A stretch of 32,312 nucleotides of DNA from positions 1-32,312 of the forward strand of contig JAUYCY010000013.1 of the NCBI GenBank assembly GCA_030692055.1. Direction: 5' to 3'. The DNA is from Candidatus Omnitrophota bacterium (GTDB taxonomy: Bacteria; Omnitrophota; Koll11; Duberdicusellales; 4484-171). Positions 15,760-32,312 of the stretch are shown one piece after another. Made by a program: the position numbers and the translations under genes. The notes below the pieces were generated by a model, which did no database searches, had not been told where the DNA came from, and saw nothing but the letters and a program-made list of their open reading frames with translations. Within the stretch, counting starts at the first letter, position 1; the number at the start of each line of letters is the position of its first letter.

Positions 15760-16110
15760 TTACCTACACCTTATAAAACAAGACGGTTTAATTTCTTTAA
15801 TTAAACCTTTTAGTTGTAAATCCAGTAAAATTTTATTCATCAGCGATTGCGCAATCCCGCCTTTTATTATAATTTCTTCTAAATAAATACCGGCTTTATC
15901 TATCATATTAAATACTGTTTGTTCTTGAGAGTCAAGTTTTGGCGCAGTTATACTTTCTTCCTTGAATTCAAGGTTCAGCTCTTCTAAAATATCTTCTATA
16001 GAATCAACGAGCTTTGCGCCCTCTTTTATGAGAAGGTGAGTGCCTCGGCTTAACGGTGAATCAGCATTACCCGGCAGAGCAAAAACTTCTCGATTTTGAC
16101 TCAGAGCAAA
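15760..16110 (-). pseudogene. dprA: dprA (smf) 3' remnant cut by the recombinase
   Basis: DprA loads RecA on incoming single-stranded DNA during transformation. Only its C-terminal part remains: the end of the Rossmann domain, [14 protein letters not shown] and [19 protein letters not shown], then the winged-helix domain (HTH ending [10 protein letters not shown]). Homology begins at about 16110; the roughly 250 N-terminal residues with the nucleotide-binding motif are missing. The frame continues 13 codons further, to an ATG at 16149, but those read recombinase DNA in another frame. Position just before topA fits the conserved dprA-topA-xer order. I looked for the 5' half to the right, up to 32.3 kb, and did not find it. 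Confidence 0.87.
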
Positions 16111-17722
16111 CCAATTCAAACGATCCTCCTTGTGGTAATGAATTATCAAGAACCGTAATTATATCAATATCCCCATTTCTGTAAACAATAACTTTATCAA
16201 TTGCATCTCTTAGAAATTCCCGCCTTTTTTCTTTACTAAAATCATCTATACTTCCCTTGATGGCAAAGAGATTAGCCAGCTTCTGTGTTTTTACTTCACT
16301 GCTGGCTGACTGTAGTTTTAGACTATCAATTTCTGCCTGAATATTAGATTTTCTAAATTTTATCCTAGGCATCTGTTTTCTAAGATCTTCCTGAGTTAAA
16401 TCACCCATAGAAAAAGCATCCAAGAGCCTATCCTCCGCAAGGGTCAATCTCTTTAATTCTTTCTCGAGTTCTTTTAATCTAACAGGTATAGTTTCCTTTC
16501 TTCCTTGAAGCTCTTTCTGTTTGATCTCAATGGTCTCATCTAAGACTTTCTGGGGTTGTTTAATTAAATATTCGATAGCATTCCAAACCTTACGATCTAT
16601 ATCCTCTGTTTTTTTATAAGGCAAAGTGCAGTTCTTCTTAACTCTACCGTAGCACTTGTAGTAGCTGATTGTTTTCCATCTTTTTACCAAATATCCACTC
16701 TTATTTCTTAATAAATTACCGTTATCATCTCTTTTTTCATATGCCTTGAAAGTAGCCCCTTGTAACTTACTTTCACACTCCGCACAATACAATAAACCAG
16801 AAAGCAGATATTCATTCTTGGTATTTCTATTAGACCATTTAGCCCTGTTCTTTATGTTTTCCTGAGCCATTTGGAATTCATTAAAGGTTATTATTGGCTC
16901 TACAGTTTGCTTTACCCATTCTGATTCTGGGCGTTTACCAATGGTCTTACCATTTTTCTGCTCGACTTTGTTGTAATAGTAAATTCCATAATATATGGGA
17001 TTGGTAAGGATTCTCCAAACAACCCCGCCAGTCCATCTGCCTATCTTAAACCTGCATTCTTTAGTTAAATAACCTTTTCTTTGAGCAAACTCAAGTGGAG
17101 TAAGTATTCTTTTAGAGTTTAGATATTCTGCTATTGCTACAGTCCCCATATTCTCTTCATTGCAGAGCTTAAATATTGTTTTAACTACCTCGGCTTCTTC
17201 CGGAACAACAATAAGCTTTTTAGTCGTCTTATCATATTTGTAGCCGATTCTGAAATGACCACCAATATACACACCCTTGCTGACCGCCTCAAGCGCACCT
17301 CTTTTCATGCGCTTAAGCAATTTCTTTTTTTCTCTCTTAGCCAAAGCACCAAATAAATCAGAAAGAAAATCGTCCTCATCATCGGACAAATCATAGGTCT
17401 GATTTGGAGTAGCCATTTTGATTTTATTGTCTCTAAAGGTTTTCTTTATGGTAAGCCAATCAAATAAATCCTCGTCCCTTGAGAGACGTTCAAGTTCTAT
17501 TACAAGGCACACATCAAACTTTTTTTCTCTAGCGTCCCCCAAGAGTCTTAACATCTGAGGCCTATTCTCAAGAGTTTCGCCAGAACCAGCCCCCTCGTCG
17601 TAAACAGTATAATTCCAAGTCTTCAACTTAGCATGTTCGGTTAAGATTTTTAGCTGAGCAGGCAGGCTAAATTTTTCTCTCTGTTTCTCAGTAGATACTC
17701 TTATATAGATGGCGCAGTTCAT
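16067..17722 (-). CDS. Large serine recombinase (integrase)
   Basis: 551 residues: N-terminal resolvase domain with nucleophile Ser10 ([13 protein letters not shown]) and the Arg-rich active site ([14 protein letters not shown]), then a Recombinase domain (about 160-275: [35 protein letters not shown]), a zinc ribbon (CAEC...C...C, about 310-370), and a coiled coil (about 385-470). This is the architecture of phage and ICE integrases such as phiC31 or TnpX types. Roughly the last 13 residues (from 16110 down) are written in dprA sequence, and the stop codon is supplied by the target gene. The start overlaps the MerR-like gene by ATGA. It appears intact and is the best candidate for the enzyme that split dprA. 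Confidence 0.93.
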
Positions 17723-17922
17723 AATACTTTTTCCCTATTATATTTACCAAGCTTTTTTACTATTTTTTTTAATTTTCTCAAATCTTCCGCTGTCCAATAC
17801 CGATATCCAGATATCGGTTCTCTTCTAGCTTTTGGAATTTTACCCGTATTCTCCCAAATGTAATAAGTCTTTCTGGAAATACCCAGTACCCTTATTACCT
17901 CTGAAATTCTATAGCTTCTCAT
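17719..17922 (-). CDS. MerR-type HTH DNA-binding protein, possible recombination directionality factor
   Basis: 67 residues forming one MerR-like winged HTH: RISEVIRVLGISRKTYYIWE is the helix-turn-helix, and GYRYWTAEDLRKLKKI the wing and following helix. It overlaps the recombinase by ATGA, so the two are translationally coupled. Small HTH proteins coupled to integrases often act as excisionases or as repressors of the integrase operon; either role is inference. Upstream, TTTTAC (17952-17957) and GTAAAA (17967-17972) form an inverted repeat that could be its operator. Confidence 0.8.
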   Translation of the reverse strand: MRSYRISEVIRVLGISRKTYYIWENTGKIPKARREPISGYRYWTAEDLRKLKKIVKKLGKYNREKVL

Positions 17923-18054
17923 ATTTACTTTCTCTCATCAACTCAATAATGTTTTACCATAGTTTAGTAAAATCGCAAGAAATATATTTAAATAAGCTCT
18001 TTTACTTTAGCCCAAATTACTAATGTCTATTCTCATCATTAAGGACGTATTTTA

Positions 18055-18222
18055 TCAAGAAAAAACATTTTTTGAAAGAGGTTTGTGCGATTTGTCATCT
18101 TTTCTATCAGCAATATTTTCTCTATCAGCATTTTTTAAAATCAATGAAGCGAGCCGATCAAGCCTTCTCTTTGTCTCTTTAGTCGGCTGATAACTTGATA
18201 TGATTCTTATTGTGTTTCTCAT
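18055..18222 (-). CDS. Small basic protein of unknown function
   Basis: A 55-codon frame starting MRNTIRIISSYQPTKETKRR, then LDRLASLILKNADRENIADR and ending NVFS. I do not recognise a family. Arg/Lys content is high, the N-terminal half could be one helix, and the DNA repeat GATAGA occurs twice in the middle (ADRENIADR). No ribosome binding site is evident before the ATG. It lies between the MerR-like gene and the O-like gene on the same strand, where integrative elements often carry such small genes. Real coding is plausible but not certain. Confidence 0.4.
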   Translation of the reverse strand: MRNTIRIISSYQPTKETKRRLDRLASLILKNADRENIADRKDDKSHKPLSKNVFS

Positions 18223-18588: not shown

Positions 18589-18918
18589 TTAAGTTATCCA
18601 CAGCCTCCAGCTGTAATAATTTTTGTTTAGACCAAAGATGTTATTATTATCTGATTTCTCTTTTAAAAGGATATTATCCATAACCAACTGTTTTATAACT
18701 CTTTTTGTATGGCGCATGCTTATTTTAGAAAGGCCTGAAATCTGCGAAAAACTAAGCCGATCTTTCTTTTTTTTCCAGCCGTAAGTTTTTCTGATGATAG
18801 TCAGCACAATTTTTAATTCAGAATTTTTAAAGGGGTAATTTAAAATTGCATCCATTAACTCATTAGCGATCTGGATGTGTCCATTTTCTACTTGCGGACT
18901 TGCTCTAAATTCATCCAT
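18589..18918 (-). CDS. Phage replication protein O N-terminal-domain protein
   Basis: 109 residues matching the N-terminal origin-binding domain of lambda O-type replication proteins: SPQVENGHIQIANELMDAIL, then ELKIVLTIIRKTYGWKKKKD and LSFSQISGLSKISMRHTKRV, a winged HTH. Full O proteins are longer (about 300 residues) and have a C-terminal DnaB-recruiting part; here only the DNA-binding part is present, so it may be a regulator or an initiator fragment. DnaA-box-like and palindromic sites lie directly downstream. The ATG is preceded by no clear ribosome binding site but by a terminator hairpin 7 nt upstream, which suggests attenuation control. Confidence 0.72.
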   Translation of the reverse strand: MDEFRASPQVENGHIQIANELMDAILNYPFKNSELKIVLTIIRKTYGWKKKKDRLSFSQISGLSKISMRHTKRVIKQLVMDNILLKEKSDNNNIFGLNKNYYSWRLWIT

Positions 18919-18922
18919 GACA

Positions 18923-18974
18923 AATAAAAAAGGGCTGGCATTTCTGAGAGTTTCCCCAGAAATACCAGCCCTTT
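18923..18974 (-). terminator. Intrinsic terminator/attenuator in the leader of the O-like gene
   Basis: Arms 18929-18946 and 18957-18974 pair over 17 of 18 positions around AAAGGGCTGG, with a 10-nt loop. Read on the minus strand the stem is followed by a run of T (18931-18926). It stands between a strong promoter (19031-19058) and the ATG at 18918, so most transcripts should end here after about 100 nt unless readthrough is allowed. Confidence 0.78.
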
Positions 18975-19030
18975 GGTTCTTCCAATAGGACTGATTACAT
19001 CACACTACGAAATTGTAACTTTCAAAGCAC

Positions 19031-19058
19031 ACTATACAATGTAATCTTAACTTGTCAA
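19031..19058 (-). promoter_or_regulatory. Sigma70 promoter of the O-like gene
   Basis: On the minus strand, TTGACA (19058-19053) and TATAGT (19036-19031) are separated by 16 bp. Transcription would start near 19024 and enter the terminator hairpin. Confidence 0.68.
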
Positions 19059-19062
19059 GCTT

Positions 19063-19123
19063 TTTTGTACAGCTTGCGATAGCAAATTAAAAATGTCCTA
19101 TTTTGTACAGCTTTTTTGTACAG
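19063..19123 (-). promoter_or_regulatory. Three CTGTACAAAA operator-like repeats
   Basis: Minus-strand copies of CTGTACAAAA at 19072-19063, 19110-19101 and 19123-19114, the first just upstream of the -35 box. Their arrangement suggests binding sites for a regulator of the promoter; TGTACA is self-complementary. Confidence 0.5.
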
Positions 19124-19186
19124 TTTTTCGTTGTTCGTTTCATTATTCGTTTAATTTTTAGCATAAAAACATAATTGGTATTCTTA

Positions 19187-19357
19187 CTAAGACCAATCTT
19201 GCCCTAGTTTTTCTCTAATCTCTTCTTTAAAGATCGTGGTATCTATGGATTTCTCCTCCTTTATTGATACCGGCAGCCCATTTTTAAAGGTTATCTTAAC
19301 GGAACCATGAAAATGTTTTCTAATTAAAGAAAGTAAATATTTATGCAATGTTTCCAT
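19187..19357 (-). CDS. Small DUF2292-like protein
   Basis: A 56-codon frame: METLHKYLLSLIRKHF, then HGSVKITFKNGLPVSI and KEEIREKLGQDWS. The middle resembles the GSVTIxxxDGxVVxI beta-hairpin of the DUF2292 family, small proteins of unknown function found widely. No strong ribosome binding site precedes the ATG. It lies alone between the O-like promoter and the riboswitch, on the strand opposite to the latter, so its promoter would sit in the AT-rich stretch 19360-19410. Confidence 0.55.
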   Translation of the reverse strand: METLHKYLLSLIRKHFHGSVKITFKNGLPVSIKEEKSIDTTIFKEEIREKLGQDWS

Positions 19358-19429
19358 ATTATTTGTTTGAATACGTTATAATTTCATATTTTATAATACA
19401 TTTATAGTGTGCGGTTTTGCTACAAAACG

Positions 19430-19458: not shown

Positions 19459-19479
19459 TTAAGTAGAAGCCATCTAGGT

Positions 19480-19590
19480 CAAATTTAATCGAAACGGCAA
19501 ACCATTCGAAAGAATGGGACGCAAAGCTAAAGAGCCTAAGTTTCGACGTAACGCCGGAATAAGGCAGTCGAGCTGCCGAAGTTAAACTTT
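19480..19590 (+). ncRNA. Cyclic-di-GMP-I (GEMM-I) riboswitch
   Basis: The conserved GEMM-I core is present in order: GGCAAACC (19497-19504), the P2 hairpin CCATTCgaaaGAATGG with its GAAA tetraloop (19503-19517), the invariant GGGACGCAAAGC (19516-19527), a variable P3 arm with GCCTAAG, and the closing GGCAGTCGAGCTGCCGAAG (19563-19581). Outer strands AAATTTAA and TTAAACTTT form P1. The base before CAAA is G, as in c-di-GMP-binding members rather than the A seen in cGAMP-selective variants. It lies upstream of a terminator and the response regulator gene and should control it. Confidence 0.92.
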
Positions 19591-19600
19591 TTTAGTCAAG

Positions 19601-19641
19601 CCTCATTCTTTCGGGTAAACCGATTTCGAATGAGGTTTTTT
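19601..19641 (+). terminator. Riboswitch expression platform: intrinsic terminator
   Basis: CCTCATTC (19601-19608) pairs with GAATGAGG (19628-19635), with an inner TCGG/CCGA pair, followed by six T. CATTCTTTCG (19604-19613) is also exactly complementary to CGAAAGAATG in aptamer P2 (19507-19516), so P2 and terminator compete through an antiterminator. Ligand-bound aptamer would leave the terminator free to form: a predicted OFF switch. Confidence 0.82.
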
Positions 19642-19663
19642 ATTTCTCTATCAAGGAGCGCTA

Positions 19664-20239
19664 ATGAAACCAAGATACGGAATTCTCATAGTCGATGATG
19701 ATAAAGCCCTTGCCCAGGATGCTAAGGAATGTCTTGAGCATGAAACAGAGATCGATATTGAGGTAGACATCTGCCTTGACAGTTCTGAAGTGCTCTCCTG
19801 CCTGAGTAAGAAAAACAAATATTATGATGTTGTCCTCCTGGACATTAAAATGCCCAAATTAAGCGGTGTTGAGGTCCTTCAACTTGTAAAAAAGAAATTT
19901 CCTGATATTCATGTAATTATTATTTCAGCTTACTTGGATGAATATAACCGCGATGAGCTCATCCGCTTAGGCGCTTATGCTGTGTTTGAAAAACCATGCG
20001 ATTATCATAAGGTGAAAGAATATATCAAACGCGCAATTGATGATATTGAGATAACCACCTTAAGGATAAAAGGACTTGATTTAAGAAAGGCCCTATATCA
20101 GGTTGCCAAAGAACTTATCTTTAAGGCCTTAAGGCGAAACAATTGGCATCTAGAAAAAACATCAGAGAATCTCAATATCACCCGTTGGTGCTTAGACCGC
20201 TGGATGAAAAAACTCTATATCAAAAGAACTGGTCTTTAA
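19664..20239 (+). CDS. Response regulator: receiver plus Fis-type HTH
   Basis: 191 residues. Receiver domain 1-125: acidic pair in LIVDDDKALAQ, phospho-acceptor Asp in VVLLDIKMPKLSGVEVL, Ser in IIISAYLDEY and Lys in VFEKPCDY. Residues about 145-190 form a Fis/HTH_8 DNA-binding domain (FKALRRNNWHLEKTSENLNI, then TRWCLDRWMKKLYI). The AAA+ domain of NtrC-type regulators is absent, as in RegA/ActR proteins, so it should bind DNA without directly activating sigma54. AGGAG stands 7 nt before the ATG. Expression is under the c-di-GMP riboswitch. The cognate kinase is probably the histidine kinase at 22115-24196. Confidence 0.9.
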   Translation: MKPRYGILIVDDDKALAQDAKECLEHETEIDIEVDICLDSSEVLSCLSKKNKYYDVVLLDIKMPKLSGVEVLQLVKKKFPDIHVIIISAYLDEYNRDELIRLGAYAVFEKPCDYHKVKEYIKRAIDDIEITTLRIKGLDLRKALYQVAKELIFKALRRNNWHLEKTSENLNITRWCLDRWMKKLYIKRTGL

Positions 20240-20461: not shown

Positions 20462-20746
20462 ATGGAAGAATACAGCTTTAACAATATAGAATTAAACGAT
20501 GATGATAAAAGGATTTTTGGGGAGATAGAAAGGCTTATTAAGGCTAATACTATGAGTGAGGCAATAAGGTGCATTAATCATGCCATAAATGGCTATCTTC
20601 ACAAGGCCCTATTAGCAGTAGAAAATCTTCAGAACGCCATACTTGATACTCCGGAAAAGCAAAAAGAAGCCTTTATCAAAATTATTCAGAACTCTCTTAA
20701 GGCATCATTGGTGGCCAAAGAATTAAGAAAATTCTACCATCTATAA
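20462..20746 (+). CDS. Small helical protein, possible phosphotransfer or DHp-like fragment
   Basis: 94 residues, predicted all helical. RCINHAINGYLHKALLAVEN resembles a histidine kinase H-box (His, then Asn/Pro position, then hydrophobic helix), and the second half could be the partner helix of a two-helix dimerisation hairpin. No catalytic ATPase domain follows. GGGGGG lies 5-6 nt before the ATG. It stands alone on the plus strand after the response regulator. Assignment as a phosphotransfer protein is inference from the motif and from the surrounding two-component genes; I recognise no named family. Confidence 0.6.
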   Translation: MEEYSFNNIELNDDDKRIFGEIERLIKANTMSEAIRCINHAINGYLHKALLAVENLQNAILDTPEKQKEAFIKIIQNSLKASLVAKELRKFYHL

Positions 20747-20849
20747 CTACTAGCCCTATCCTAAATACCTCTCCGTGCAAATATTAGTTATAACTATATC
20801 TCTGAATTGGTACTTGGCCAATAACCTCAAAATAATCAGATTGATTCGC

Positions 20850-21200
20850 TTAGAAACTTTCTATAACCTTCATTAGCTCTTGTGGCATTATCGGTTTAAT
20901 CAGATAACCCATGGCACCAATGGATTCCGGTGGATTTCTATCAGCAAAGATTTGGTCGCCGGTAAGGAAATATACCTTAACAAGCGGGTTAATCTCTTTT
21001 AACTTTTTTAGCACTTCTGTTCCGTCCATCATTGGTAAATGCAAATCCAAAAGCACGCCGTCAGGTTTATTTTCTTCGTAAAGTTTTATTCCTTCTTGAC
21101 CTCTCATGGCAGTTAGGGCTTTTATACCTCTTCTTTCAATCAGTCTAGCAAGAGGGATAAGTGCCTCTTGCTCATTTTCAATAATTAAAACCGTCTTCAT
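20850..21200 (-). CDS. Stand-alone receiver (CheY-like response regulator)
   Basis: 116 residues, one receiver domain. The acidic pocket reads LIIENEQEA (Glu/Glu instead of the usual Asp pair), the phospho-acceptor Asp is in GVLLDLHLPMMDGTEVL, Thr in YFLTGD and Lys in GYLIKPIMP. No output domain. The ATG overlaps the stop of the kinase C-terminal fragment (ATGA), so the pair once formed, or still forms, a coupled unit. It is the last gene of the minus-strand signalling run. Confidence 0.88.
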   Translation of the reverse strand: MKTVLIIENEQEALIPLARLIERRGIKALTAMRGQEGIKLYEENKPDGVLLDLHLPMMDGTEVLKKLKEINPLVKVYFLTGDQIFADRNPPESIGAMGYLIKPIMPQELMKVIESF

Positions 21201-21679: not shown

Positions 21680-21681
21680 GC

Positions 21682-24197: not shown

Positions 24198-25277
24198 TTA
24201 TTTTTTTCGTATAAAACCAAATTTGTCACAATACTCAAATGTTCTTATAAGGTTGTTGCCATCTATTTTAGGATAACTAAATCTACATTCTTTCAGGATA
24301 CCTTGTGTATACTGTGAAATGAATCTTGTTTTATAGTTACAATATGGAATAAATGGTTCAGCTAACATTTTCTGAGTAGATGTCCACTTACTAAAATCAA
24401 ATTTCTCTATAGGAATAAATTTTGGCATTTTTATACCAAAATATTCTGAGGATAACTTCGCAAAGAAATGATTATTCGTATCTTCCGGCGAAACGATATG
24501 ATATGTTGCCGATTCGTCCCTGTTCCCAAGATAAAAGATTGCCCTAGCGGCAGTATCTACGTTTATTAAATTTAAAGAGGCCTTTAAATTCATAGGGAAT
24601 TCTGCGTAAAGTCCTTGAGAGAAAAACCGATGCGGTTCGTAAAAAAAATTAAAATTATTGGTTCGCCCTTCTTGTGATTCTCCTATAATTAAACTTGGAC
24701 GAAAAACAGCTATTTTTAAACCCTTTTTCTGATAATATTTAGCCAAAATCTCCGCTTCGTATTTTGTTTTCTCGTAGGCATTATAAAAACCTTGCCCTAA
24801 TTCTAGCATTTCTTCATCGAAAGTATTAACATTTTTGTTTCCTACGATGAAGGCTGTACTTATGTGATTTATTTTTTTCATTTTTGTACAGTGTAATGCT
24901 AAATCTAAAACATTTTTCGTTCCCTGTACGTTTATTTTTTCTAACATTTGTAACGGTGCCCTGAAAGCGGTTAAAGCTGCACAATGAAAAATCATTTCAA
25001 TTTCTGATTTAAGCAATTCTAAGGTAGTTTCACTTTCAATCCCAAAATTGCGTAAAGTAATATCTCCTTCTATAACTATTAAATTCTTTAAAAAACCAGG
25101 AGCGATAGACTCATCCCAGAATTTTAAAAGATCGATAACGCGCTGATAAGCATTTTCGCTTTTTCCACTTCTCGCAAGAGCATAAACTTTATATCCATTT
25201 TCAAGAAGAATTTTTAACAAATATGAGCCTAACAAGCCCGTTGTTCCAGTTATAAATACTACTCTTTTATGGGACAT
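24198..25277 (-). CDS. NAD(P)-dependent SDR, thioester-reductase-like (NAD_binding_4)
   Basis: 359 residues, extended short-chain dehydrogenase. The Rossmann motif is VVFITGTTGLLGSYLLKIL (TGxxGxxG). The catalytic pair is YEKTKYEAE (YxxxK). HCAALTAFRAPLQMLEKINV and VFRPSLIIGESQEGRTNNFN fit the NAD_binding_4 / thioester reductase group, which reduces acyl thioesters or fatty acyl groups to aldehyde or alcohol. An acyl carrier protein is encoded about 6 kb away, so an acyl-ACP substrate is conceivable. It is the first full gene of the signalling operon, 1 bp before the kinase. A sugar-nucleotide epimerase is the alternative. Confidence 0.8.
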   Translation of the reverse strand: MSHKRVVFITGTTGLLGSYLLKILLENGYKVYALARSGKSENAYQRVIDLLKFWDESIAPGFLKNLIVIEGDITLRNFGIESETTLELLKSEIEMIFHCAALTAFRAPLQMLEKINVQGTKNVLDLALHCTKMKKINHISTAFIVGNKNVNTFDEEMLELGQGFYNAYEKTKYEAEILAKYYQKKGLKIAVFRPSLIIGESQEGRTNNFNFFYEPHRFFSQGLYAEFPMNLKASLNLINVDTAARAIFYLGNRDESATYHIVSPEDTNNHFFAKLSSEYFGIKMPKFIPIEKFDFSKWTSTQKMLAEPFIPYCNYKTRFISQYTQGILKECRFSYPKIDGNNLIRTFEYCDKFGFIRKK

Positions 25278-25820: not shown

Positions 25821-25836
25821 TGGCACGGATGTTGCT
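25821..25836 (+). promoter_or_regulatory. Sigma54 (-24/-12) promoter of rpoN
   Basis: TGGCACGGATGTTGCT matches the sigma54 consensus TGGCACG-N4-TTGCW at every fixed position. The start of transcription would fall about 25846-25847, only some 7 nt before the rpoN ATG, so the mRNA leader would be nearly absent and would contain only part of the TAGGAGA ribosome site (25843-25849). Autoregulation of rpoN is implied. Confidence 0.85.
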
Positions 25837-25853
25837 TGTCTGTAGGAGACAGT

Positions 25854-27266
25854 ATGCCTTTAGAACTAAAACTCACTCCGAAACTAACCTATAAACTGCG
25901 CCTTTCGCCGCAGATGAAATTATCACTTAGTCTCCTTCCGCTTCCTCTGGTAAAACTTAAAGAATATATTATTGAGGAAATCGAAAAAAACCCTCTTTTA
26001 GAAGTCCTTACCAGCGAATCCGTGTTTCCTAATAATAAACAAAATAGTGATATCGTAACCAATATTGAGCAGCAAAATTCTGAACCTGAATCACCTTGGT
26101 CAGAAGAAGATGAGAAAAAAAGGCAATATAAAGAGAGTCTTATAGCTACCTCCCCTACACTACAAGAACACTTATCGAGACAACTGCATCTTTTTGTTAA
26201 CTTTGATGGCGAACGCAAAATTGGAGAGCTAATCATCGGTAATATAGATGATAATGGATATCTCAGCTGCCCAGTAGATGAGATAGCCGAATCGAGCAAA
26301 ACCACAAAATTCCAGGTTGAAAAGGTATTAAATCTTATTCAGACTTTTGACCCGATAGGGGTAGGCGCAAGAAATTTAAGAGAGTGCCTTTTAATCCAAC
26401 TAAAGGCAAAAGGAGAGGAAAACTCTTTAAATGGCCGGATTGTAGATAAATACTTGCCTTTCTTAGAGAAAAAAAGATATAAGTATCTTGTCAAAAAGCT
26501 TTCCGCCAAAGGCGGATCCCTGCCTGACCGGCAGGCAGGCACCTCCGGTAGAAAGGTCTCGGTTGAAGAAATTAAAGAAGCTGTAAAAGAAATAGCGAGT
26601 CTTGAGCCAAAGCCTGGCCGTTCCTTTAGCACAGAAAAAACTGTGCGATTAATACCAGATGCGATACTAAAGAAAAATAAGGATAGGTATGAGGTTATAT
26701 TGAATGACTGTGAACTGCCAAGTATTAAAATAAATGACAAATACAAAACGATGTTAAAAGAAGAAAATACGCCCAGCGATGTTAAAAGATACTTAATAGA
26801 ACGACTTAATGCCGCAAAGGCCCTAATTAGCGCTATAGATAAACGCAGAAGAACAATTCAAGAAATAACTGAAGATATTGTTAATTTTCAGAAGGAATCT
26901 TTAGATAAAGAATTGAACGACTTTAAACCTATGTCCTTATCCCAAATTGCAAAGAGAATCGGTAAGCATAAATCTACAGTAAGTAGAACTATAGCCAATA
27001 AATATATACAAACTCCCTACGGCATTTTGGAACTAAGATATTTTTTAAACTCAGGGATTAAGCAAGAAAATGGCGAGTTCTATTCATCAAAAAATATCAA
27101 ACTTGAAATTATAGAGATGATAAATAATGAAGATAAAAGGAAGCCTATTGGCGATCAGGATATTACTAATTTGTTTAGACAAAAAGGAATATCTGTATCA
27201 CGCCGTACAATAACTAAATATCGAACCCAATTAAAAATTCTACCCTCCCAATCAAGACAGGAATAA
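25854..27266 (+). CDS. rpoN: RNA polymerase sigma-54 factor RpoN
   Basis: 470 residues. Region I is Leu/Gln-type (MPLELKLTPKLTYKLRLSPQ, with EEIEKNPLLEV). Region II is acidic. The core-binding domain contains IGNIDDNGYL and FDPIGVGARNLRECL. The DNA-binding part has the HTH MSLSQIAKRIGKHKSTVSR and the C-terminal RpoN box SRRTITKYRTQLKILPSQSR. Residues about 216-233 (GSLPDRQAGTSG in the middle) are not part of the family: they are encoded by an in-frame palindromic insertion at 26502-26540. TAGGAGA precedes the ATG. RpoN needs AAA+ activators; none lies in this window. A perfect sigma54 promoter stands directly upstream. Confidence 0.95.
   Translation: MPLELKLTPKLTYKLRLSPQMKLSLSLLPLPLVKLKEYIIEEIEKNPLLEVLTSESVFPNNKQNSDIVTNIEQQNSEPESPWSEEDEKKRQYKESLIATSPTLQEHLSRQLHLFVNFDGERKIGELIIGNIDDNGYLSCPVDEIAESSKTTKFQVEKVLNLIQTFDPIGVGARNLRECLLIQLKAKGEENSLNGRIVDKYLPFLEKKRYKYLVKKLSAKGGSLPDRQAGTSGRKVSVEEIKEAVKEIASLEPKPGRSFSTEKTVRLIPDAILKKNKDRYEVILNDCELPSIKINDKYKTMLKEENTPSDVKRYLIERLNAAKALISAIDKRRRTIQEITEDIVNFQKESLDKELNDFKPMSLSQIAKRIGKHKSTVSRTIANKYIQTPYGILELRYFLNSGIKQENGEFYSSKNIKLEIIEMINNEDKRKPIGDQDITNLFRQKGISVSRRTITKYRTQLKILPSQSRQE
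26502..26540. repeat. Palindromic insertion inside rpoN
   Basis: Two adjacent hairpins: TCCGCCaaaGGCGGA (26502-26516) and CCTGCCTG-accgg-CAGGCAGG (26519-26539). The first has the same arms as 2641-2655 and the second nearly equals the minus-strand copy at 2484-2506. It stays in frame and adds about 16-18 residues between two conserved parts of the core-binding domain. Confidence 0.85.
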
Positions 27267-27276
27267 CGTTCATACC

Positions 27277-27654
27277 TTACTTTTCTTTTATATATCTTAT
27301 TTCAATCCTACCTTCTTTATTAATCAATATATTCAATAAGAGGCTAATTACACTATAAAGTAAGGCGCCGAAAAAAGCAGTCCAAAAATTAGCAATACTA
27401 AACCCTTTGACTATTTTTGAGGCAAGATAAAATAGAAAGCCATTGATGATAAAAGTAAAAAGCCCCCAAGTGAGGATATTTATAGGAAGGGTAACCAGAG
27501 TTATTAAAGGCCGTAAAAAGGCATTGATAATACCTAATATTAGAGCCGCAACAAAAACAGTTGTGATGTTGGCGATTTCGATTCCTTTAATAATATAGGT
27601 TACTGCCAGGAGGGCAAGTGAGTTTATAAACCACCTTAAAAGAAATCCTCTCAT
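27277..27654 (-). CDS. Phage holin family 4 (YvlD-like) membrane protein
   Basis: About 125 residues and four hydrophobic helices. The family pattern is clear: MRGFLLRWFINSLALLAVTY, ILGIINAFLRPLITLVTLPI and FTFIINGFLFYLASKIV. Proteins of this Pfam family (phage_holin_4_2) are mostly chromosomal, function unknown, with possible roles in membrane stress or small-molecule passage. The frame is open upstream to 27735, but that part lies over the bactofilin tail and its palindromes, so I start at the ATG at 27654. It follows bactofilin with a 4-bp gap and converges on rpoN. Confidence 0.83.
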   Translation of the reverse strand: MRGFLLRWFINSLALLAVTYIIKGIEIANITTVFVAALILGIINAFLRPLITLVTLPINILTWGLFTFIINGFLFYLASKIVKGFSIANFWTAFFGALLYSVISLLLNILINKEGRIEIRYIKEK

Positions 27655-27658
27655 ATCT

Positions 27659-28087
27659 TTATTCTTTTCCCGCCTCTGGCGGGATCCCGCTCTGGCGGGA
27701 CTTTTTTTCCTTTGACTCTGCCTTTCCTTCCTCAAGAGGCATATGACAATTTCCCTTTAGGATTGCGCCTTCACTCACAACTAGGGATGGAGTTTCCACA
27801 TTTCCTGTTACCCTTGCCGAGGCAGCCAATTCAAGGCGCTTGCTACAGACGATATCCCCTTTTACCTTGCCGGCTATGATTATGGCATCCCCCTTAACTA
27901 TCTTAGCTTTTACATCCGCGTTTTCACCGATAATTAAGATTCCTTTTGTTTCCAACTCTCCTTCGAATTTACCGTTTATCCTTAAGTTAATCGGTCCGCT
28001 AAATTTAACATTTCCCTCTATGCCGGTCTCGATATCAATCACTTTACCTTCTACGTTTATATTTTGCTTATCCTCTTTCTTGAACAT
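27659..28087 (-). CDS. Bactofilin
   Basis: 142 residues. Bactofilins polymerise without nucleotide into filaments at the membrane and position envelope or motility machinery. The DUF583 beta-helix is seen in repeated short strands: IETGIEGNVKFSGPINLRIN, GKFEGELETKGILIIGENAD, GDAIIIAGKVKGDI and ARVTGNVETPSLVVSEGAIL. The tail (about 128-142, SRQSGIPPEAGKE) is encoded by the double palindrome at 27668-27700 and is not family sequence; the stop lies just past it. A membrane protein follows after 4 bp. Confidence 0.9.
   Translation of the reverse strand: MFKKEDKQNINVEGKVIDIETGIEGNVKFSGPINLRINGKFEGELETKGILIIGENADVKAKIVKGDAIIIAGKVKGDIVCSKRLELAASARVTGNVETPSLVVSEGAILKGNCHMPLEEGKAESKEKKSRQSGIPPEAGKE
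27668..27700. repeat. Double TCCCGC/GCGGGA palindrome at the bactofilin 3' end
   Basis: TCCCGCCtctGGCGGGA (27668-27684) followed at once by TCCCGCtctgGCGGGA (27685-27700). The same two-hairpin plan, with a decayed second hairpin, occurs at 30274-30306. It encodes the last residues of bactofilin. Confidence 0.85.
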
Positions 28088-28142
28088 AGAATTTGCCCCC
28101 TATTCTTTTAATGCTTTTTGTTTCGTTAGTATCAAAACAACC

Positions 28143-28430
28143 CTACATCTTTCTACTGTTAGAGATATCCCGCGCAGAAAAAGCCTTAGCTAAATATCCA
28201 TATTCCTTAACATACTTACGTGCGATAGAATGACAGTTTAAACAATCAGTATTTACGACATTGTAATTAGAACATTTCAACAAGGACCTCGTTTCAAGCA
28301 AAATATCTTGGGCGTATTCTTGTTTTTCTTTGGGTTTTACTTTCCCGACTTTTAAAATTATGTTTTTTATTACTTCGTCTGATTCACAAAAAATAGGACA
28401 TTTTATATTATTTTGAGTTGATTCTTCCAT
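28143..28430 (-). CDS. Small Cys-containing protein, unknown
   Basis: 95 residues, soluble. Cys residues occur as KCPIFCES near the start, LLKCSNY in the middle and DCLNCHSIARKY later. The last contains CxxCH, a haem c attachment pattern, but there is no signal peptide, so cytochrome function is unlikely; metal binding is possible. The centre is helical and charged. No family recognised. It lies between bactofilin and another unknown in a minus-strand run. Confidence 0.65.
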   Translation of the reverse strand: MEESTQNNIKCPIFCESDEVIKNIILKVGKVKPKEKQEYAQDILLETRSLLKCSNYNVVNTDCLNCHSIARKYVKEYGYLAKAFSARDISNSRKM

Positions 28431-28481
28431 GGCTCAAGTCTTTTAGATTAGTTAGTCTCATCTGTAATTACTTATTTTATA

Positions 28482-28832
28482 TCACTGCGACATTGTATTT
28501 AGCCAATTTAAAAAATCATTAAAAGAATCCCAACTTTTTTCTAATTGCGGTTCGTTGATAACTATCTTGCTTATTTTATCGAAAAATTTAAAAAAAGTTT
28601 CTTCGGGTGAAAGGATACTGAATTCTGAATCAGCCCAAGGTAAGCATTCCCCCTTTCTACATTTATCATCTTTCGCAACAATTTGGATTATTTTACCATT
28701 ATGGCAAACTAAAACTAAATGGTTTGCTTTCCCATTATATCTAAAACGAATACGCCCAATATTTTTCCCTATGTGTTTTTTAAAGACTTGGCATAATTGC
28801 CCAACGATCTTTTCAAATTCTCCGGTAGTCAT
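28482..28832 (-). CDS. Conserved-looking protein of unknown function
   Basis: 116 residues, soluble, alpha/beta. MTTGEFEKIVGQLCQVFKKH is a first helix; RIRFRYNGKANHLVLVCHNG and KIIQIVAKDDKCRKGECLPW suggest strands and a CxxxxxC pair. The end is aromatic (FNDFLNWLNTM). I recognise no family. A GGGG-type ribosome site stands about 8 nt before the ATG. It is 24 bp downstream of the AMIN/PilZ gene and probably co-transcribed. Confidence 0.68.
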   Translation of the reverse strand: MTTGEFEKIVGQLCQVFKKHIGKNIGRIRFRYNGKANHLVLVCHNGKIIQIVAKDDKCRKGECLPWADSEFSILSPEETFFKFFDKISKIVINEPQLEKSWDSFNDFLNWLNTMSQ

Positions 28833-28856
28833 ACTGAGTTACCCCTTCTTTAAAAT

Positions 28857-30323
28857 TTAGGTAATTTTTAAACTTCCATCTTTTGCTATTTTTGATTCTA
28901 TATAGTGATTAAGTTCGATTCTTTTCTCTTCCTCCAATTCAGCAAAAGAAACCCCATAACGATTTACCGGTGAGTCAAATTTATTCCAAATAACTTTTGC
29001 TTGCATACGCATCATGGGAACCTTATCTCCGAAAAAGAATAATCTTAAAGCTATTTTTTCCTTTTCCTTGAATTCATGTCTGGTTTCAAAACATAGTCCT
29101 CCTAAGCTAATATTATTGGCAAAGGATTTTATACTCTTCGATTTATCTTGGGATTCAATTCTTAAGATTATAGTCCTATTAAAATCTCTACTTAAATCTA
29201 AGCGGGAAAACTGCCTCTTTTCTAGTGATTTTTCCGGAATCCAAAGCTCTTCCTCATCCTTAATTGGAGAAGATAACTTCTTCGCCATTCCTTTCTCAAC
29301 AAGTATCTCTTTTAGAGATTCGTATGAATTTTTAACCTGTTCGGCTTCTTTTTCTTTTTCCAATAACTCTGCCTCTTTTGCTTTACGAGCTTTTTCTTCC
29401 TGCTCTAAAAGTTTCGCCTCTCTTTTTACGTCCAATTTGAGTTGTTCAAATTCTTTTTCTCGTGCCGACGAAGTGTTTTCTATAATTTTACGAACAATCT
29501 CCTCCTGTTCGAGAAGCTTATTTTTCTCTGCAACTTGAGATTTAAGTTTTTCAATCTCTTGGGTTGCCATATTTTTATCAAGGATTAACCTATATCTACG
29601 CCAAAATAACCAAAAGAACAAAAGCCCTAATCCAGAAACTAAGGCTAATCCTGTAAACCAAAATACTATTGCCCACACTATATTTTTTCTCACTTTTTCC
29701 TTAGGAAATTGTACTGTCACTTTAGGGGTTTCTAATTGCGGAGGCTTGGATGACATTTTTGTAAGGGTGGCGTCCATAGTCTGCGACCTTTTAATTATCT
29801 TATCTTTGGTTTCGCTCTTTGTAAAAACTTCCTTACCACCTTCAGGAAATACAACCATCTCTGGGGGTGTCTGGATATCCAATATAATAGTATCTAGTTC
29901 CTGCCAAATCTTGTAAGGTGTTCTTTGGGTGAGTTCAAAGGTTAAGGATTTAAGTGACCTGTTTTTACCTTCTTCAAAATAGCTAGTAACAATCCTTTTT
30001 ATTACCCCTTGATTCACCATAACTTCATTGTCAATCTTGCTTACAATATTCCTAGTTTGAAATTCAATTGCTAACCTCGGCGGGTTCTCCAGCCAATAGG
30101 AGTTAAATTTAACCGGGCCAGATGTTGAAATTATTATTCTTGTTCCCTCTTTAACCACGTTAGTGGCTGAATTTTCAGATTTTCCTGTTAAATCCTGCGC
30201 TATTGAAGGTGCATGAAAAAGTAAGGAAAAAACAAAGAGTGCCAAGAAAAAAATAAAAGTAGTTTTGAGCTTTTCCCGCATTTTGCGGGACCCCGTTTTG
30301 GTGGGAAAATCTGTCGGCGTCAT
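28857..30323 (-). CDS. Membrane c-di-GMP receptor with AMIN and PilZ domains
   Basis: 488 residues from the ATG at 30323. A signal peptide (about 15-43, FIFFLALFVFSLLFHAPSIA) leads to a periplasmic AMIN-like domain (about 50-155, GTRIIISTSGPVKFNSYWLE, LDIQTP). A transmembrane helix (about 215-243) and a long coiled coil (about 248-345) follow. The cytoplasmic C-terminus is a PilZ domain with the c-di-GMP motifs RQFSRLDLSR and NNISLGGL. It should relay c-di-GMP across the inner membrane to cell wall or secretin-like partners. The start overlaps the upstream stop (ATGA). An inner ATG at 30281 begins the signal peptide directly but lies within a palindrome. Confidence 0.87.
   Translation of the reverse strand: MTPTDFPTKTGSRKMREKLKTTFIFFLALFVFSLLFHAPSIAQDLTGKSENSATNVVKEGTRIIISTSGPVKFNSYWLENPPRLAIEFQTRNIVSKIDNEVMVNQGVIKRIVTSYFEEGKNRSLKSLTFELTQRTPYKIWQELDTIILDIQTPPEMVVFPEGGKEVFTKSETKDKIIKRSQTMDATLTKMSSKPPQLETPKVTVQFPKEKVRKNIVWAIVFWFTGLALVSGLGLLFFWLFWRRYRLILDKNMATQEIEKLKSQVAEKNKLLEQEEIVRKIIENTSSAREKEFEQLKLDVKREAKLLEQEEKARKAKEAELLEKEKEAEQVKNSYESLKEILVEKGMAKKLSSPIKDEEELWIPEKSLEKRQFSRLDLSRDFNRTIILRIESQDKSKSIKSFANNISLGGLCFETRHEFKEKEKIALRLFFFGDKVPMMRMQAKVIWNKFDSPVNRYGVSFAELEEEKRIELNHYIESKIAKDGSLKIT
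30274..30306. repeat. TCCCGC/GCGGGA palindrome in the AMIN-PilZ gene start
   Basis: TCCCGCattttGCGGGA (30274-30290) followed by a decayed second hairpin CCCCGttttggtGGGA (30291-30306). The plan matches 27668-27700. The alternative ATG of the PilZ gene (30281-30279) lies in the first loop and stem. Confidence 0.78.
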
Positions 30324-30946
30324 AGTTTTTTCACCACATCGTTTTCTTTAAATTCCACACTCTTCCAAGGAGTCAAGATAACTGTTGCGGAAGTCTTTTC
30401 TTCTATTTTTTCTACTTGCACCTTGCCGATAAATTTATCATCACGATAGACCGAAAGAACATCGCCTAATTTTAGATTATTCGCACTACCTAAATTTACA
30501 CCTACAAGGCCATGTTCTTTATCAAGCGTTAAAACGTTGCCGGTTAAACCACGCGTGCTTTTGACCACAATCTTTTCGAGTTCAATACTCTTGGGTAGCG
30601 CGGCAGTCAACTTTTCAACTTTTTCCTCTAGGGCTTGCTTCTCGTTTGCAAGTGAAATTAACTGAGCTTCTGCTTCTTTTCTGACAATGATTTCTTTTTC
30701 AAGTTTATCCAAGGTAAGTTTTATCTGTTCATCCTTTGCTGTTATTTCTTTCTTTGCTTCTACAAGATGATTTTCTACTACTCTTTTGACTTCAATAGTC
30801 CGTGTTAATTCGTTTTCTGTTTTTATCCTTAATGCTTTTTCTTTTTCTTTAAGAATATAAAGAGTGATACAAACAATTAATAAAATAATTATGCTTGGCC
30901 AAAAGATTTTCGGCCTGACCAAAGAATGAAGGTTCACTTTTAGCAT
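30320..30946 (-). CDS. Membrane-anchored coiled-coil protein
   Basis: About 208 residues. One N-terminal helix (IFWPSIIILLIVCITLYILK), a coiled coil of about 85 residues (heptads rich in Glu/Lys), then a C-terminal beta domain (GNVLTLDKEHGLVGVNLGSA, LGDVLSVYRDDKFIGKVQVE) resembling the beta modules of MreC-like envelope scaffold proteins. No exact family. GGAGG at 30962-30958 lies 11 nt before the ATG at 30946; the GTG at 30958 overlaps the ribosome site and is rejected. It is coupled to the AMIN-PilZ gene by an ATGA overlap, so the two probably work together at the membrane. Confidence 0.8.
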   Translation of the reverse strand: MLKVNLHSLVRPKIFWPSIIILLIVCITLYILKEKEKALRIKTENELTRTIEVKRVVENHLVEAKKEITAKDEQIKLTLDKLEKEIIVRKEAEAQLISLANEKQALEEKVEKLTAALPKSIELEKIVVKSTRGLTGNVLTLDKEHGLVGVNLGSANNLKLGDVLSVYRDDKFIGKVQVEKIEEKTSATVILTPWKSVEFKENDVVKKL

Positions 30947-30968
30947 AGTACAAAACACCTCCTTTTAT

Positions 30969-31223
30969 TTACTCTGCGATCTCTGGATCTCTATCTATCT
31001 TACGTGCTATATATTTAACCACATTAGCTACTGTATCCAACCTTTCCGCATCCTCATCGGGAATTTCAATATTAAATTTTTCTTCTAAAGCCATAACCAA
31101 TTCTATCGTATCAATTGATTCCGCGCCTAAATCATCAATAAAAGAAGTTTCGGGTTTGACCTCTTCGGGTTTTAACCTCAATTGTTCACAGATAATTGTC
31201 TGTATTTCCTCAAATAAACTCAA
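30969..31223 (-). CDS. Acyl carrier protein
   Basis: 84 residues, the normal ACP size. The phosphopantetheine site is DLGAESIDTIELVMALEEKF; the Ser of ESID takes the 4'-phosphopantetheine arm (the usual sequence is DSLD). FNIEIPDEDAERLDTVANVV is the typical second half. No fatty acid synthesis genes are near, so this is probably a dedicated ACP. It lies 3 bp after the gas-vesicle-associated gene and before the coiled-coil protein. Its partner could be the reductase at 24198-25277. Confidence 0.93.
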   Translation of the reverse strand: MSLFEEIQTIICEQLRLKPEEVKPETSFIDDLGAESIDTIELVMALEEKFNIEIPDEDAERLDTVANVVKYIARKIDRDPEIAE

Positions 31224-31226
31224 AAT

Positions 31227-31910
31227 CTAACCTTCCGCTTGAGCAATGAGATACCTGTCTAATTCCTCAAATCGCTCCTTGTGTTTATGACAAAAAGGCA
31301 GTAAGTTTTGGTATTCTCTTACCTTATCTATATCTTTTATCTCTTTAATTTGAATACTTCTGGGTAGTCTGTTTTTGATATTGTGGTAGGCACCAATAAA
31401 AAGAATACCTTTCTCGCTATGGTGTAGAGTTTCGTCTATGTTCTTAGCAATAAATCTATCTCTTTTATTTAAAAGCCTGTCTTTGGCTAATTTATATTTT
31501 ATAAATATAATTAATTTACGCGTGATTGACTTGGCTTGAGTTAAAGCAACTAATCTATCCCGTTCCTCTTTGACAAGCTTGAAATCCTCTGTCTTAACTA
31601 AAATGGCTCCTCTTTTTAGGAGCCTGGCGACTAATTCGTAATTCCTGCTTCCTGCTTTTGCGCTTTCTTCAACGATTCTCTGTCCTACCTCGCCATCCGC
31701 GACCATGCCATCCTGATATATCTTCACTCCTGTTACATCTATGGAATCGAAATAATCCGATATCACATCCCAAAACTTTTCAACTGCCGCCTTGTGTTTC
31801 CCCCAAACATCTTCTCCCAGATCCGCGATACCTCTTTTAGTCACATCTTTCGCTAATGACCCGAGGTCAGCGCTTGTATGAATAACTGGGACATAAATCA
31901 GTTTTCTCAT
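31227..31910 (-). CDS. Conserved hypothetical protein of gas vesicle neighbourhoods
   Basis: 227 residues, soluble alpha/beta. Distinct motifs: MRKLIYVPVIHTSADLGSLA, DVTGVKIYQDGMVADGEVGQ, RLLKRGAILVKTEDF and GILFIGAYHNIKNRLP. From memory, proteins with this pattern occur beside gvp genes in several deltaproteobacteria, but I cannot run a search. The end strand FIGAYHNI recalls TraB/GumN-type families only loosely. It is 3 bp downstream of gvpO and 3 bp upstream of the ACP gene, so the three are one transcript. No function is assigned. Confidence 0.72.
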   Translation of the reverse strand: MRKLIYVPVIHTSADLGSLAKDVTKRGIADLGEDVWGKHKAAVEKFWDVISDYFDSIDVTGVKIYQDGMVADGEVGQRIVEESAKAGSRNYELVARLLKRGAILVKTEDFKLVKEERDRLVALTQAKSITRKLIIFIKYKLAKDRLLNKRDRFIAKNIDETLHHSEKGILFIGAYHNIKNRLPRSIQIKEIKDIDKVREYQNLLPFCHKHKERFEELDRYLIAQAEG

Positions 31911-31913
31911 AAT

Positions 31914-32186
31914 TTATTCTTTTTGAATCTCACAACGCTTCCTCATCCTTATTCTCTCATAACCAAGAAGGTTTCCAGAAGCATCAACTCGGACATCATA
32001 AATTCCAAGGAGATCAAGATTAGCTGCTTCAGAAGGCTTTTCAGTTATTTCAATAGTAATGTGCCATATATCCGCTTCTTTGTTTATTCCTATCGCAGTG
32101 GGAGAACTAAACCCAGTGAGTTGAACCAACCCTACATTAGCAATTTCCACAATATCTTTAACTTCCATTTTCTGCTCTTTATGCAC
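31914..32186 (-). CDS. gvpO: Gas vesicle protein GvpO
   Basis: 90 residues. GvpO is an accessory factor of gas vesicle assembly. The family pattern is visible: helix VEIANVGLVQLTGFSSPTAI, then WHITIEITEKPSEAANLDLL, GIYDVRVDASGNLLGYERIR and the basic end RMRKRCE. The frame starts at a GTG (32186) with GAGGAG 10 nt upstream; an ATG at 32168 is the alternative. The start overlaps the end of a preceding small frame by 8 bp. GvpA and other structural genes are not in the window but would be expected just beyond its right edge. Confidence 0.8.
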   Translation of the reverse strand: MHKEQKMEVKDIVEIANVGLVQLTGFSSPTAIGINKEADIWHITIEITEKPSEAANLDLLGIYDVRVDASGNLLGYERIRMRKRCEIQKE

Positions 32187-32307
32187 TTTTAATCTTCTCC
32201 TCTAATTTTCCTAATCTCTTTTTCAGCTCTGTGTTTTCTTTTTCTATCTCAGCTTCTTTTGCTTTTGAGGAAAGAAAACTATCAGTTTGCCACCAATTTA
32301 TTCCCAT
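32179..32307 (-). CDS. Small coiled-coil frame at window edge, possibly partial
   Basis: From ATG at 32307 the frame reads MGINWWQTDSFLSS, then a Glu/Lys helix ending KLEEKIKSA: 42 codons. It may begin further right, outside the window. The helical tail would form a coiled coil. It overlaps gvpO by 8 bp, which suggests coupling within a gas vesicle operon. Family not recognised. Confidence 0.5.
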   Translation of the reverse strand: MGINWWQTDSFLSSKAKEAEIEKENTELKKRLGKLEEKIKSA

Positions 32308-32312
32308 CTCCA

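What the first reader, a model, noticed from the sequence alone, without database searches (positions are those of the whole stretch)
16067..32312. Integrative element inserted in dprA, possibly carrying sigma54, c-di-GMP signalling and gas vesicle cargo
Seen: only the dprA 3' part stands before topA, cut by a complete large serine recombinase followed by a MerR-like gene and a phage O-like gene. The dprA 5' half is absent up to 32.3 kb. Known: large serine integrases insert elements into genes. Inference: the whole right half is cargo of one island longer than 16 kb, so buoyancy or envelope functions may travel together with their own sigma factor and kinases.
Basis: partly seen in the sequence, partly recalled or inferred. 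Interest (0 to 1): 0.8.

Follow-up and report, generated by a model that had tools for sequence, protein, structure and literature searches.

The report
Mobile element family that splits dprA
A family of mobile elements in little-known Omnitrophota bacteria inserts itself at one fixed codon of the DNA-uptake gene dprA and supplies new ends for both halves of that gene; whether the gas-vesicle genes further along this piece of DNA travel inside the element is plausible but unproven.

Summary
In detail: a dprA 3' part stands before topA, cut by an intact large serine recombinase (LSR), with no dprA 5' half up to the contig end. Relatives show real integration. Two Omnitrophota genomes (G216, closest to the window by topA; G124) carry related LSRs (77%; 69% over the 134 residues present) and a dprA split at the same codon, the 5' half on another contig. 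In 23 of 29 related database LSRs the tail fits out-of-frame dprA sequence: dprA-targeting is a family trait. In these relatives the DprA N-half gains an element-coded tail of about 34 residues; the C-half gains an in-frame start codon.

The cargo claim is only partly supported. The right 16 kb shows no element end and mostly differs in composition from the left half, but is a patchwork. LSR+MerR match G216's dprA prophage; RepO, c-di-GMP riboswitch and regulator match another G216 contig beside other LSRs; kinase and regulators match a third, among chromosomal genes. The rpoN-gas-vesicle block occurs elsewhere without this LSR, yet its tree conflicts with topA, so it moved horizontally. One island longer than 16 kb is about even odds; rearrangement or a chimeric contig stays possible.

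The parts
15760..16119 (-). dprA 3' part (end of Rossmann fold plus winged helix), in frame with a TTG start supplied by the element, AGGAGG just upstream
   Evidence: Pfam, under cut-off; G216 and G124 show the same fusion with ATG
16085..16098 (-). attL core region, aligned to the 14-bp core shared by attL and attR in G124; GAAGT kept in the window
16067..17722 (-). large serine recombinase (integrase), 551 aa; last codons read dprA DNA out of frame
   Evidence: Pfam, PHROG 95 integrase 3.6e-98, family alignment
17719..17922 (-). MerR-like small HTH, candidate recombination directionality factor
   Evidence: PHROG 66 excisionase/regulator 6.9e-6; 71% over 52 residues in G216's dprA element
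18589..18918 (-). phage replication protein O, N-terminal domain
   Evidence: Pfam 3.1e-23; 52% to G216 C16
19045..19126 (.). direct repeats TTTTTGTACAG, iteron-like, beside RepO
   Evidence: family D2; function not tested
19187..19357 (-). 56-aa ORF of the RepO module
   Evidence: 59% in G216 C16, same order
19486..19580 (+). c-di-GMP-I riboswitch aptamer
   Evidence: Rfam 75.2 bits; also in G216 C16, 76.9 bits
19600..19641 (+). hairpin plus T-run after the aptamer (terminator-like by eye and by fold)
   Evidence: fold of 19480-19655, z -3.85; not listed by the consensus scan
19664..20239 (+). response regulator with Fis-type HTH, under the riboswitch
   Evidence: Pfam; 87% to G216 C16; 28 database proteins at 81-90%
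20462..20746 (+). 94-aa ORF of the RepO module
   Evidence: 61% in G216 C16
20850..24238 (-). RRa, 108-aa ORF, RRb, 7TM histidine kinase: signalling block, membership of the element unproven
   Evidence: same order in G216 C39 among chromosomal genes; partial in G404
24198..25277 (-). NAD_binding_4 / thioester-reductase-like protein
   Evidence: Pfam 6.6e-54
25836..27266 (+). rpoN (sigma-54)
   Evidence: Pfam; syntenic in G225 and G290
27277..28087 (-). Phage_holin_4_2-type membrane protein and bactofilin
   Evidence: Pfam; syntenic in G225 and G290
28143..31910 (-). gvp-linked block: 95-aa, 116-aa, PilZ, coiled-coil 212-aa, ACP, 227-aa protein without a Pfam match
   Evidence: Pfam; synteny, except the 116-aa ORF, which had no match; tree of the 227-aa protein
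31914..32186 (-). GvpO; start of the gas-vesicle operon, cut by the contig end
   Evidence: Pfam 3.4e-11

Best explanation
An integrative element of a dprA-specific large-serine-integrase family, which I did not find described, is inserted in dprA of an uncultured Omnitrophota bacterium. Shown by comparison: (1) the LSR family recombines at one codon of dprA (E-Q-x-R-E-V|F-A-x-P-G); (2) attL lies inside the 3' end of the LSR gene; (3) integration leaves two open, in-frame chimeras: DprA residues 1-~250 plus an element tail of about 34 residues (attR side, seen in relatives only), and an element start codon plus the DprA C-terminal part, 119-140 aa in all (attL side, also in the window). Inferred: the conserved catalytic serine and the MerR-like candidate directionality factor let the element excise and restore dprA; while integrated it blocks DprA-dependent transformation, which would protect the element from curing by homologous recombination. 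The adjacent RepO and c-di-GMP-riboswitch/response-regulator module is a portable part of such elements, as in G216 it stands beside other LSRs. Whether the element continues through the kinase and rpoN-gas-vesicle blocks is open (about 0.5).
For: Split dprA with the same break in G216 (5' part matching residues 7-255 on C23, 3' part 240-362 on C8) and G124 (1-253 on C27, 242-367 on C10). att junctions share CAAGGCAGGGAAGT in G124 and GGGAAGT in G216. 23 of 29 LSRs P0001-P0029 score 10-11 of 11 for a dprA motif in the +1 frame of their tails; 0 of 25 more distant LSRs reach 10 (maximum 9) (the 29 include the window's own, G216's as P0005, G124's as P0022, and P0025 is part of P0017). Ten database DprA fragments, found by the tail, carry it; in 8 of 10 the tail is at least 15 points more identical to G124's than the body is (e.g. 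P0055 body 61%, tail 94%); the other two are P0056 (100%, 97%) and P0064 (62%, 62%). Intact dprA-topA-xerC-kdtA in L001; syntenic left flank with unsplit dprA in G223 and G407. Terminases in G216's dprA element: PHROG 38 7.9e-70 and Terminase_2 6.5e-10. RepO-riboswitch-regulator module beside two LSRs in G216 C16.
Against: No attR and no dprA 5' half on this contig, so the right end is unknown. The blocks to the right lie on separate contigs of G216. An LSR above 50% identity was found in only 2 genomes: G216 and G124, of 285, 292 and 384 searched, overlapping samples; the other genomes with matches (9 of 285 at 1e-40, 67 of 292 at 1e-15 and 6 of 384 at 1e-48, these two included) are at 26-36% identity. 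No excision, circular form or reads were examined. Codon comparison of the tail between G124 and G216 shows no strong purifying selection. No data on transformation in Omnitrophota: none of the 12 papers listed mentions Omnitrophica.
Confidence: 0.87

Rival explanations
1. One island longer than 16 kb: everything from attL to beyond 32.3 kb, including kinases, rpoN and gas-vesicle genes, is a single LSR element.
For: No element end up to 32312. 6-kb tetranucleotide r left-vs-right 0.63-0.71, against 0.88 and 0.91 for the two non-overlapping left-left pairs and a within-genome median of 0.81 (5% quantile 0.68, 66 pairs from 16 genomes); right half vs G216's element 0.71-0.75, left half vs it 0.42-0.50. 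gvp-linked 227-aa tree groups the window with G085/G225/G416 (99/97), topA with G216/G201/G223 (100/100).
Against: In the finer view, 24.0-28.9 kb reaches 0.73-0.74 to the left half, at the control's 5% quantile of 0.73, and the highest left-right 6-kb value exceeds 14% of the within-genome pairs. Kinase block is orthologous to one among chromosomal genes of G216. gvp block not seen with this LSR elsewhere: 17 of 384 genomes carry the 227-aa protein, G216 does not, and G124 is not among the 17.
Confidence: 0.5
2. The element is short or truncated (LSR to about 20.75 kb) and was joined to the kinase/gvp region by a chromosomal rearrangement or deletion that removed attR and the dprA 5' half.
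For: Similarity to G216 C16 ends at 20746 and similarity to G216 C39 starts at 20857: an abrupt change of block with no attR.
Against: No such rearrangement seen in the relatives looked at; much of the right half is not host-like in composition.
Confidence: 0.28
3. The contig is a chimera of two genomes or loci, joined between the LSR module and the kinase or gvp block.
For: Metagenome-type contig; composition shift; four blocks with four different best matches.
Against: The shift falls on the att site, where relatives show the same junction; RepO-riboswitch-regulator-94-aa order is kept in G216; kinase best hits are in genomes of G216's order, like the left flank's.
Confidence: 0.22

Closest known systems
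Listeria phage A118 / comK prophages (large serine integrase in a competence gene)
   Same: Serine recombinase with a large C-terminal domain; attB inside the coding sequence of comK (PMC3556126, passages read)
   Different: Target is dprA, not comK; 256 phage records match this LSR, all under 60% identity, 27.8% at best among the 8 listed; attL lies within the LSR gene and both dprA halves stay in frame
MGEs that disrupt competence genes (Croucher et al. 2016, PMC4774983)
   Same: Same gene class; passages read name comYC, comFA, comK, comM, comEC and radC as targets
   Different: dprA is not named as a target there: its two occurrences are titles in the reference list
Myxophage Mx8 (attP inside int)
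   Same: Integration changes the 3' end of the integrase gene (PMC6070905, passages read)
   Different: Different host, site and integrase; here the overlap also spans a second frame shared with dprA
G216 dprA prophage
   Same: LSR 77%, MerR 71%, same dprA codon
   Different: Carries TerS, TerL, DnaJ-TPR and PLD genes among others; 15 of its 17 proteins have no match in the window
Omnitrophota rpoN-bactofilin-PilZ-gvp clusters (G225, G290)
   Same: Gene order rpoN, holin-like, bactofilin, 95-aa, PilZ, 212-aa, 227-aa
   Different: No LSR of this family listed for these genomes (G225's best is 30%, on another contig); G225's cluster lies next to dnaX- and recR-like genes (by eye)

Membership tests
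Large serine recombinase integrase | Resolvase N-domain with catalytic Ser, Recombinase domain, Zn ribbon | tested here: met
   that Ser10 is the catalytic one is recalled
Large serine recombinase integrase | Specific att site with a short shared core | tested here: met
   attL/attR pairs in G124 and G216; only attL in the window
Large serine recombinase integrase | Recombination activity; directionality factor | not testable with these tools
   MerR-like gene is a candidate only
Competence-gene-disrupting mobile element | Insertion inside the coding sequence at a conserved site | tested here: met
Competence-gene-disrupting mobile element | Host transformable and made non-transformable | not testable with these tools
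   uncultured host
Prophage | Packaging/structural genes | tested here: inconclusive
   no terminase, capsid or tail match among the right-half proteins scanned (one Phage_holin_4_2-named membrane protein); terminases present in G216's element; window element incomplete
c-di-GMP-I riboswitch | Score above Rfam gathering threshold | tested here: met
   75.2 vs 35
Gas vesicle cluster | gvp genes incl. GvpA | tested here: inconclusive
   GvpO only; contig ends; homologous clusters in G223 and G225 continue with further gvp-type genes, named by eye

The most novel reading that the evidence does not exclude
The element does not merely break dprA but edits it: it keeps both halves in frame, replacing the end of the DprA Rossmann fold and winged helix by an element-coded tail to make an expressed, altered DprA (for example dominant-negative or serving the element), while its residence is tied to c-di-GMP through the riboswitch-controlled regulator, and in this lineage it has become a >16 kb island moving a sigma-54 gas-vesicle programme.
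Probability: 0.12. Interest if true: 0.82.

Novelty: new variant of a known kind. Interest (0 to 1): 0.52.

Why it matters
It adds dprA to the competence genes that mobile elements use as landing sites, in a phylum (Omnitrophota) for which I found no transformation data, and gives a sequence signature (LSR tail in the +1 frame of dprA; tailed DprA fragments) by which the idea that elements disable transformation to avoid being cured can be tested in metagenomes. The LSR family with its inferred dprA attachment site is also a highly diverged integrase candidate. Separately, the data indicate that rpoN-bactofilin-PilZ-gas-vesicle clusters move between Omnitrophota lineages.

Tried and rejected
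Close LSR relatives in IMG/VR: none with the single sequence; one 25% hit with the alignment. TerL of G216: one 29% viral hit. RepO and the riboswitch-linked regulator: no viral relative; 436 plasmid records match the regulator, all under 60% identity, 26.9-29.7% among the 5 listed. The window's LSR had no match in G001 and G002. Programmed, vertically kept element (skin/nif type, recalled): rejected, because only G216 and G124 carry a close LSR in the genome samples, and (39 of 42 order genomes with a dprA match) only G216 shows two pieces broken at this codon; partial matches such as G170, G402, G406 and G412, and DprA matches ending near residue 290, were not resolved one by one. Circularity of G223's 37-kb gvp contig: gene order wraps round its ends, but no terminal overlap of 11 bases or more; left open. 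Selection on the tail: differences between G124 and G216 by codon position are 13, 8 and 12, with 6 synonymous and 15 non-synonymous codons, against the 'functional tail' idea; the higher database conservation could reflect relatedness of the elements. The first tail-motif script missed motifs ending at the stop codon and was replaced; the allowed residues per motif position were chosen by me after seeing tails and intact relatives. The output was cut before the second query; one search repeated it. In one search two of the three left segments overlap (9755-12000); that pair (0.93) is not used.

Papers: searches listed no paper on MGE insertion into dprA that I recognised; this does not prove absence. 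Passages read of PMC11472951, PMC12637031, PMC6008420 and PMC5341023 (a DprA gene carried on a resistance island) did not report it. Searches on Omnitrophota with gas vesicles (passages of PMC8382752), Omnitrophica with integrase/prophage, gas vesicle with rpoN and horizontal transfer and c-di-GMP riboswitch with bacteriophage and integrase gave nothing on point in the listings.
Full report
WHAT IS THERE. The window looks like one whole 32,312-base contig of an Omnitrophota-type genome (one search gives the longest contig of its LSR as 32312; the best topA relative in genome contigs is an Omnitrophota MAG; no genome is held). Positions 1-15755 hold envelope genes, lpxL, lpxK, kdtA, xerC and topA (names by eye and by synteny) in an order kept in relatives: G216, G223, G170, G406, G407. 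Next comes a dprA 3' part, then a complete LSR, a MerR-like HTH, a RepO-type gene, a c-di-GMP-I riboswitch with a response regulator, a kinase/response-regulator block, a reductase and an rpoN-bactofilin-PilZ-ACP-GvpO block running off the contig. No dprA 5' half, no aroK and no element right end is found.

IT IS A REAL INTEGRATION AT A FIXED SITE. L001, an Omnitrophota contig, has intact dprA-topA-xerC-kdtA. In the order of G216, 39 of 42 genomes have a dprA match and only G216 shows two pieces broken at this codon; partial matches in some other genomes were not resolved. G216 (topA 67% to the window, same clade at 100/100) and G124 each hold two open dprA pieces meeting at residues ~240-255 of the 373-aa L001 protein. 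Each 3' piece adjoins an LSR, 77% identical to the window's in G216 and 69% over the 134 residues present in G124, whose contig starts inside the gene. The att sequences share CAAGGCAGGGAAGT between attL and attR in G124 and GGGAAGT in G216; the window's attL keeps GAAGT.

THE TARGET IS A FAMILY TRAIT. The last codons of the LSR are dprA DNA read in another frame. For the 54 database LSRs I asked whether some codon choice for the C-terminal 60 residues encodes the dprA motif [SE]Q[GNSDK][RK][ED]V[FYL]A[VLITR]PG in the +1 frame. Of P0001-P0029 (the window's LSR and relatives at 46-80% identity, some of them fragments), 23 of 29 score 10-11 of 11; P0023 scores 9, and P0012, P0014, P0020, P0024 and P0028 score 6-7, all five ending before or just inside the motif. 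None of the 25 more distant LSRs exceeds 9, nor do blocks from elsewhere in the proteins. The residue sets were chosen after inspecting tails, and the 29 include G216's LSR, G124's and one fragment of another member. Searching with the 40 C-terminal residues of G124's truncated DprA returned 10 DprA N-terminal fragments among 11 candidates, with the element tail QFIQQELCE...LEYLQILKGK and variants. Tail identity to G124 is 62-97%, body identity 60-100%; in 8 of 10 the tail is at least 15 points more identical than the body, in P0056 and P0064 it is not. So both ends of the element family can be recognised in unbinned data.

IN-FRAME CHIMERAS. At attL the dprA 3' part is in frame with a start codon from the element: TTG in the window (after AGGAGG), ATG in G216 and G124, giving (L/M)N(W/S)FAxSQxREVFA.... 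At attR (G216, G124 and ten database fragments) DprA continues into the element-coded tail. Whether these chimeras are made or act is unknown; the codon comparison of the tail between G124 and G216 gave no sign of strong purifying selection in that frame.

WHAT THE ELEMENTS CARRY. G216's dprA element shows TerL, PLD nuclease and DnaJ-TPR genes on the LSR side (8.7 kb to the contig end) and TerS, a 479-aa protein (primase-like by eye; no Pfam match), a DUF5659 protein and a 279-aa protein with a weak HTH match on the dprA-5' side (3.6 kb): a prophage or a satellite-like relative. Of its 17 proteins, only LSR and MerR match the window. The window's next block (RepO, 56-aa ORF, riboswitch, response regulator, 94-aa ORF; 18.4-20.75 kb) is collinear with the end of G216 contig C16 (66.8% and 78.6% DNA identity), where it stands beside two other LSRs of 532 and 647 aa. 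The regulator is 87% identical there, has no close match in the other 41 genomes of the order (one at 36%), yet has 28 database relatives at 81-90%, one named from Candidatus Velamenicoccus. Sporadic presence with high identity suggests a portable module, though slow evolution would also raise identity, and its neighbours are only 52-61% identical.

THE RIGHT HALF AS CARGO. For: composition changes at the recombinase. 6-kb segments left-right correlate 0.63-0.71; the two non-overlapping left-left pairs 0.88 and 0.91; within-genome pairs of 16 relatives have median 0.81 and 5% quantile 0.68 (66 pairs); right half versus G216's element 0.71-0.75, left half 0.42-0.50. The sliding view is less uniform: 3.25-kb segments from 16.0 to 25.65 kb and from 27.2 to 32.05 kb lie at 0.46-0.69 to the left half, but those covering 24.0-28.85 kb at 0.73-0.74, which is the 5% quantile of the control (0.73, 64 segments). 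The gvp-linked 227-aa protein groups the window with G225, G416 and G085 (99/97), whereas topA groups it with G216, G201 and G223 (100/100), although G223 has its own gvp cluster. Against: the kinase-RRb-108-aa-RRa block occurs in the same order in G216 contig C39 between pgi-like, methyltransferase and GGDEF-type genes (named by eye), and partly in G404 beside a metH-like gene, with no dprA LSR there. The kinase's best matches are in genomes of G216's order (54% in G216; 60% over 315 residues in G404); the next full-length match is 38%, partial ones up to 45%. The rpoN-gvp block is collinear in G225 (beside dnaX- and recR-like genes) and G290, and partly in G223, G371 and G001; none of these has an LSR of this family among the matches listed. 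Thus the right half is a patchwork of four blocks. One island is about even odds (0.5); rearrangement or a chimeric contig is not excluded.

MECHANISM. Shown: site, split, LSR with its domains, family-wide targeting. Inferred: excision with the MerR-like factor; loss of DprA function while integrated; benefit to the element by avoiding homologous-recombination curing, as argued for other competence-gene insertions in PMC4774983 (passages read). The riboswitch is followed by a terminator-like hairpin (fold; the consensus scan does not list it), so c-di-GMP probably sets read-through into the regulator; the sign of control was not tested.

KNOWN OR NEW. LSR integration into a competence gene is known (A118/comK), and attP inside an integrase gene is known (Mx8). 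New here, to the extent of searches: dprA as a dedicated site, in Omnitrophota, with both dprA halves kept in frame. Matches in named phage records are all under 60% identity (256 records; 27.8% at best among the 8 listed).

Noticed in passing
25836-32186: Conserved rpoN, holin-like, bactofilin, 95-aa, PilZ, 212-aa, (ACP), 227-aa, gvp gene order in several Omnitrophota genomes, with a tree of the 227-aa protein discordant to topA: a sigma-54-linked gas-vesicle programme that seems to move horizontally.
   Followed up: partly
31227-31910: 227-aa protein with no Pfam or NCBIfam match; relatives in 17 of 384 genomes of the class, beside gvp-type genes (by eye) in G223 and G225.
   Followed up: partly
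19486-20239: c-di-GMP-I riboswitch with a terminator-like hairpin in front of a receiver-Fis-HTH regulator without an AAA+ match; 28 database relatives at 81-90% identity.
   Followed up: partly
L176 (G216 contig C16): Island-like contig with two further LSRs, IS200-like and rve-type transposase genes (by eye), and the same RepO-riboswitch-regulator module.
   Followed up: partly
L064 and L065 (G223 contig C112, 37182 bases): Order of bactofilin, 95-aa, PilZ and 212-aa genes wraps round the contig ends as if circular, but no terminal overlap; carries AbiE-, RecQ- and type I restriction-like genes (by eye).
   Followed up: partly
6251-8326 and 8442-10253: Apparent gene fusions: a glycosyltransferase-4 with a heptosyltransferase-like half, and an LpxL-like acyltransferase with a second domain (by eye, not searched).
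   Followed up: no
19045-19126 and 18929-18974: TTTTTGTACAG repeats beside RepO (possible iterons) and a 20-pair terminator-like hairpin.
   Followed up: no
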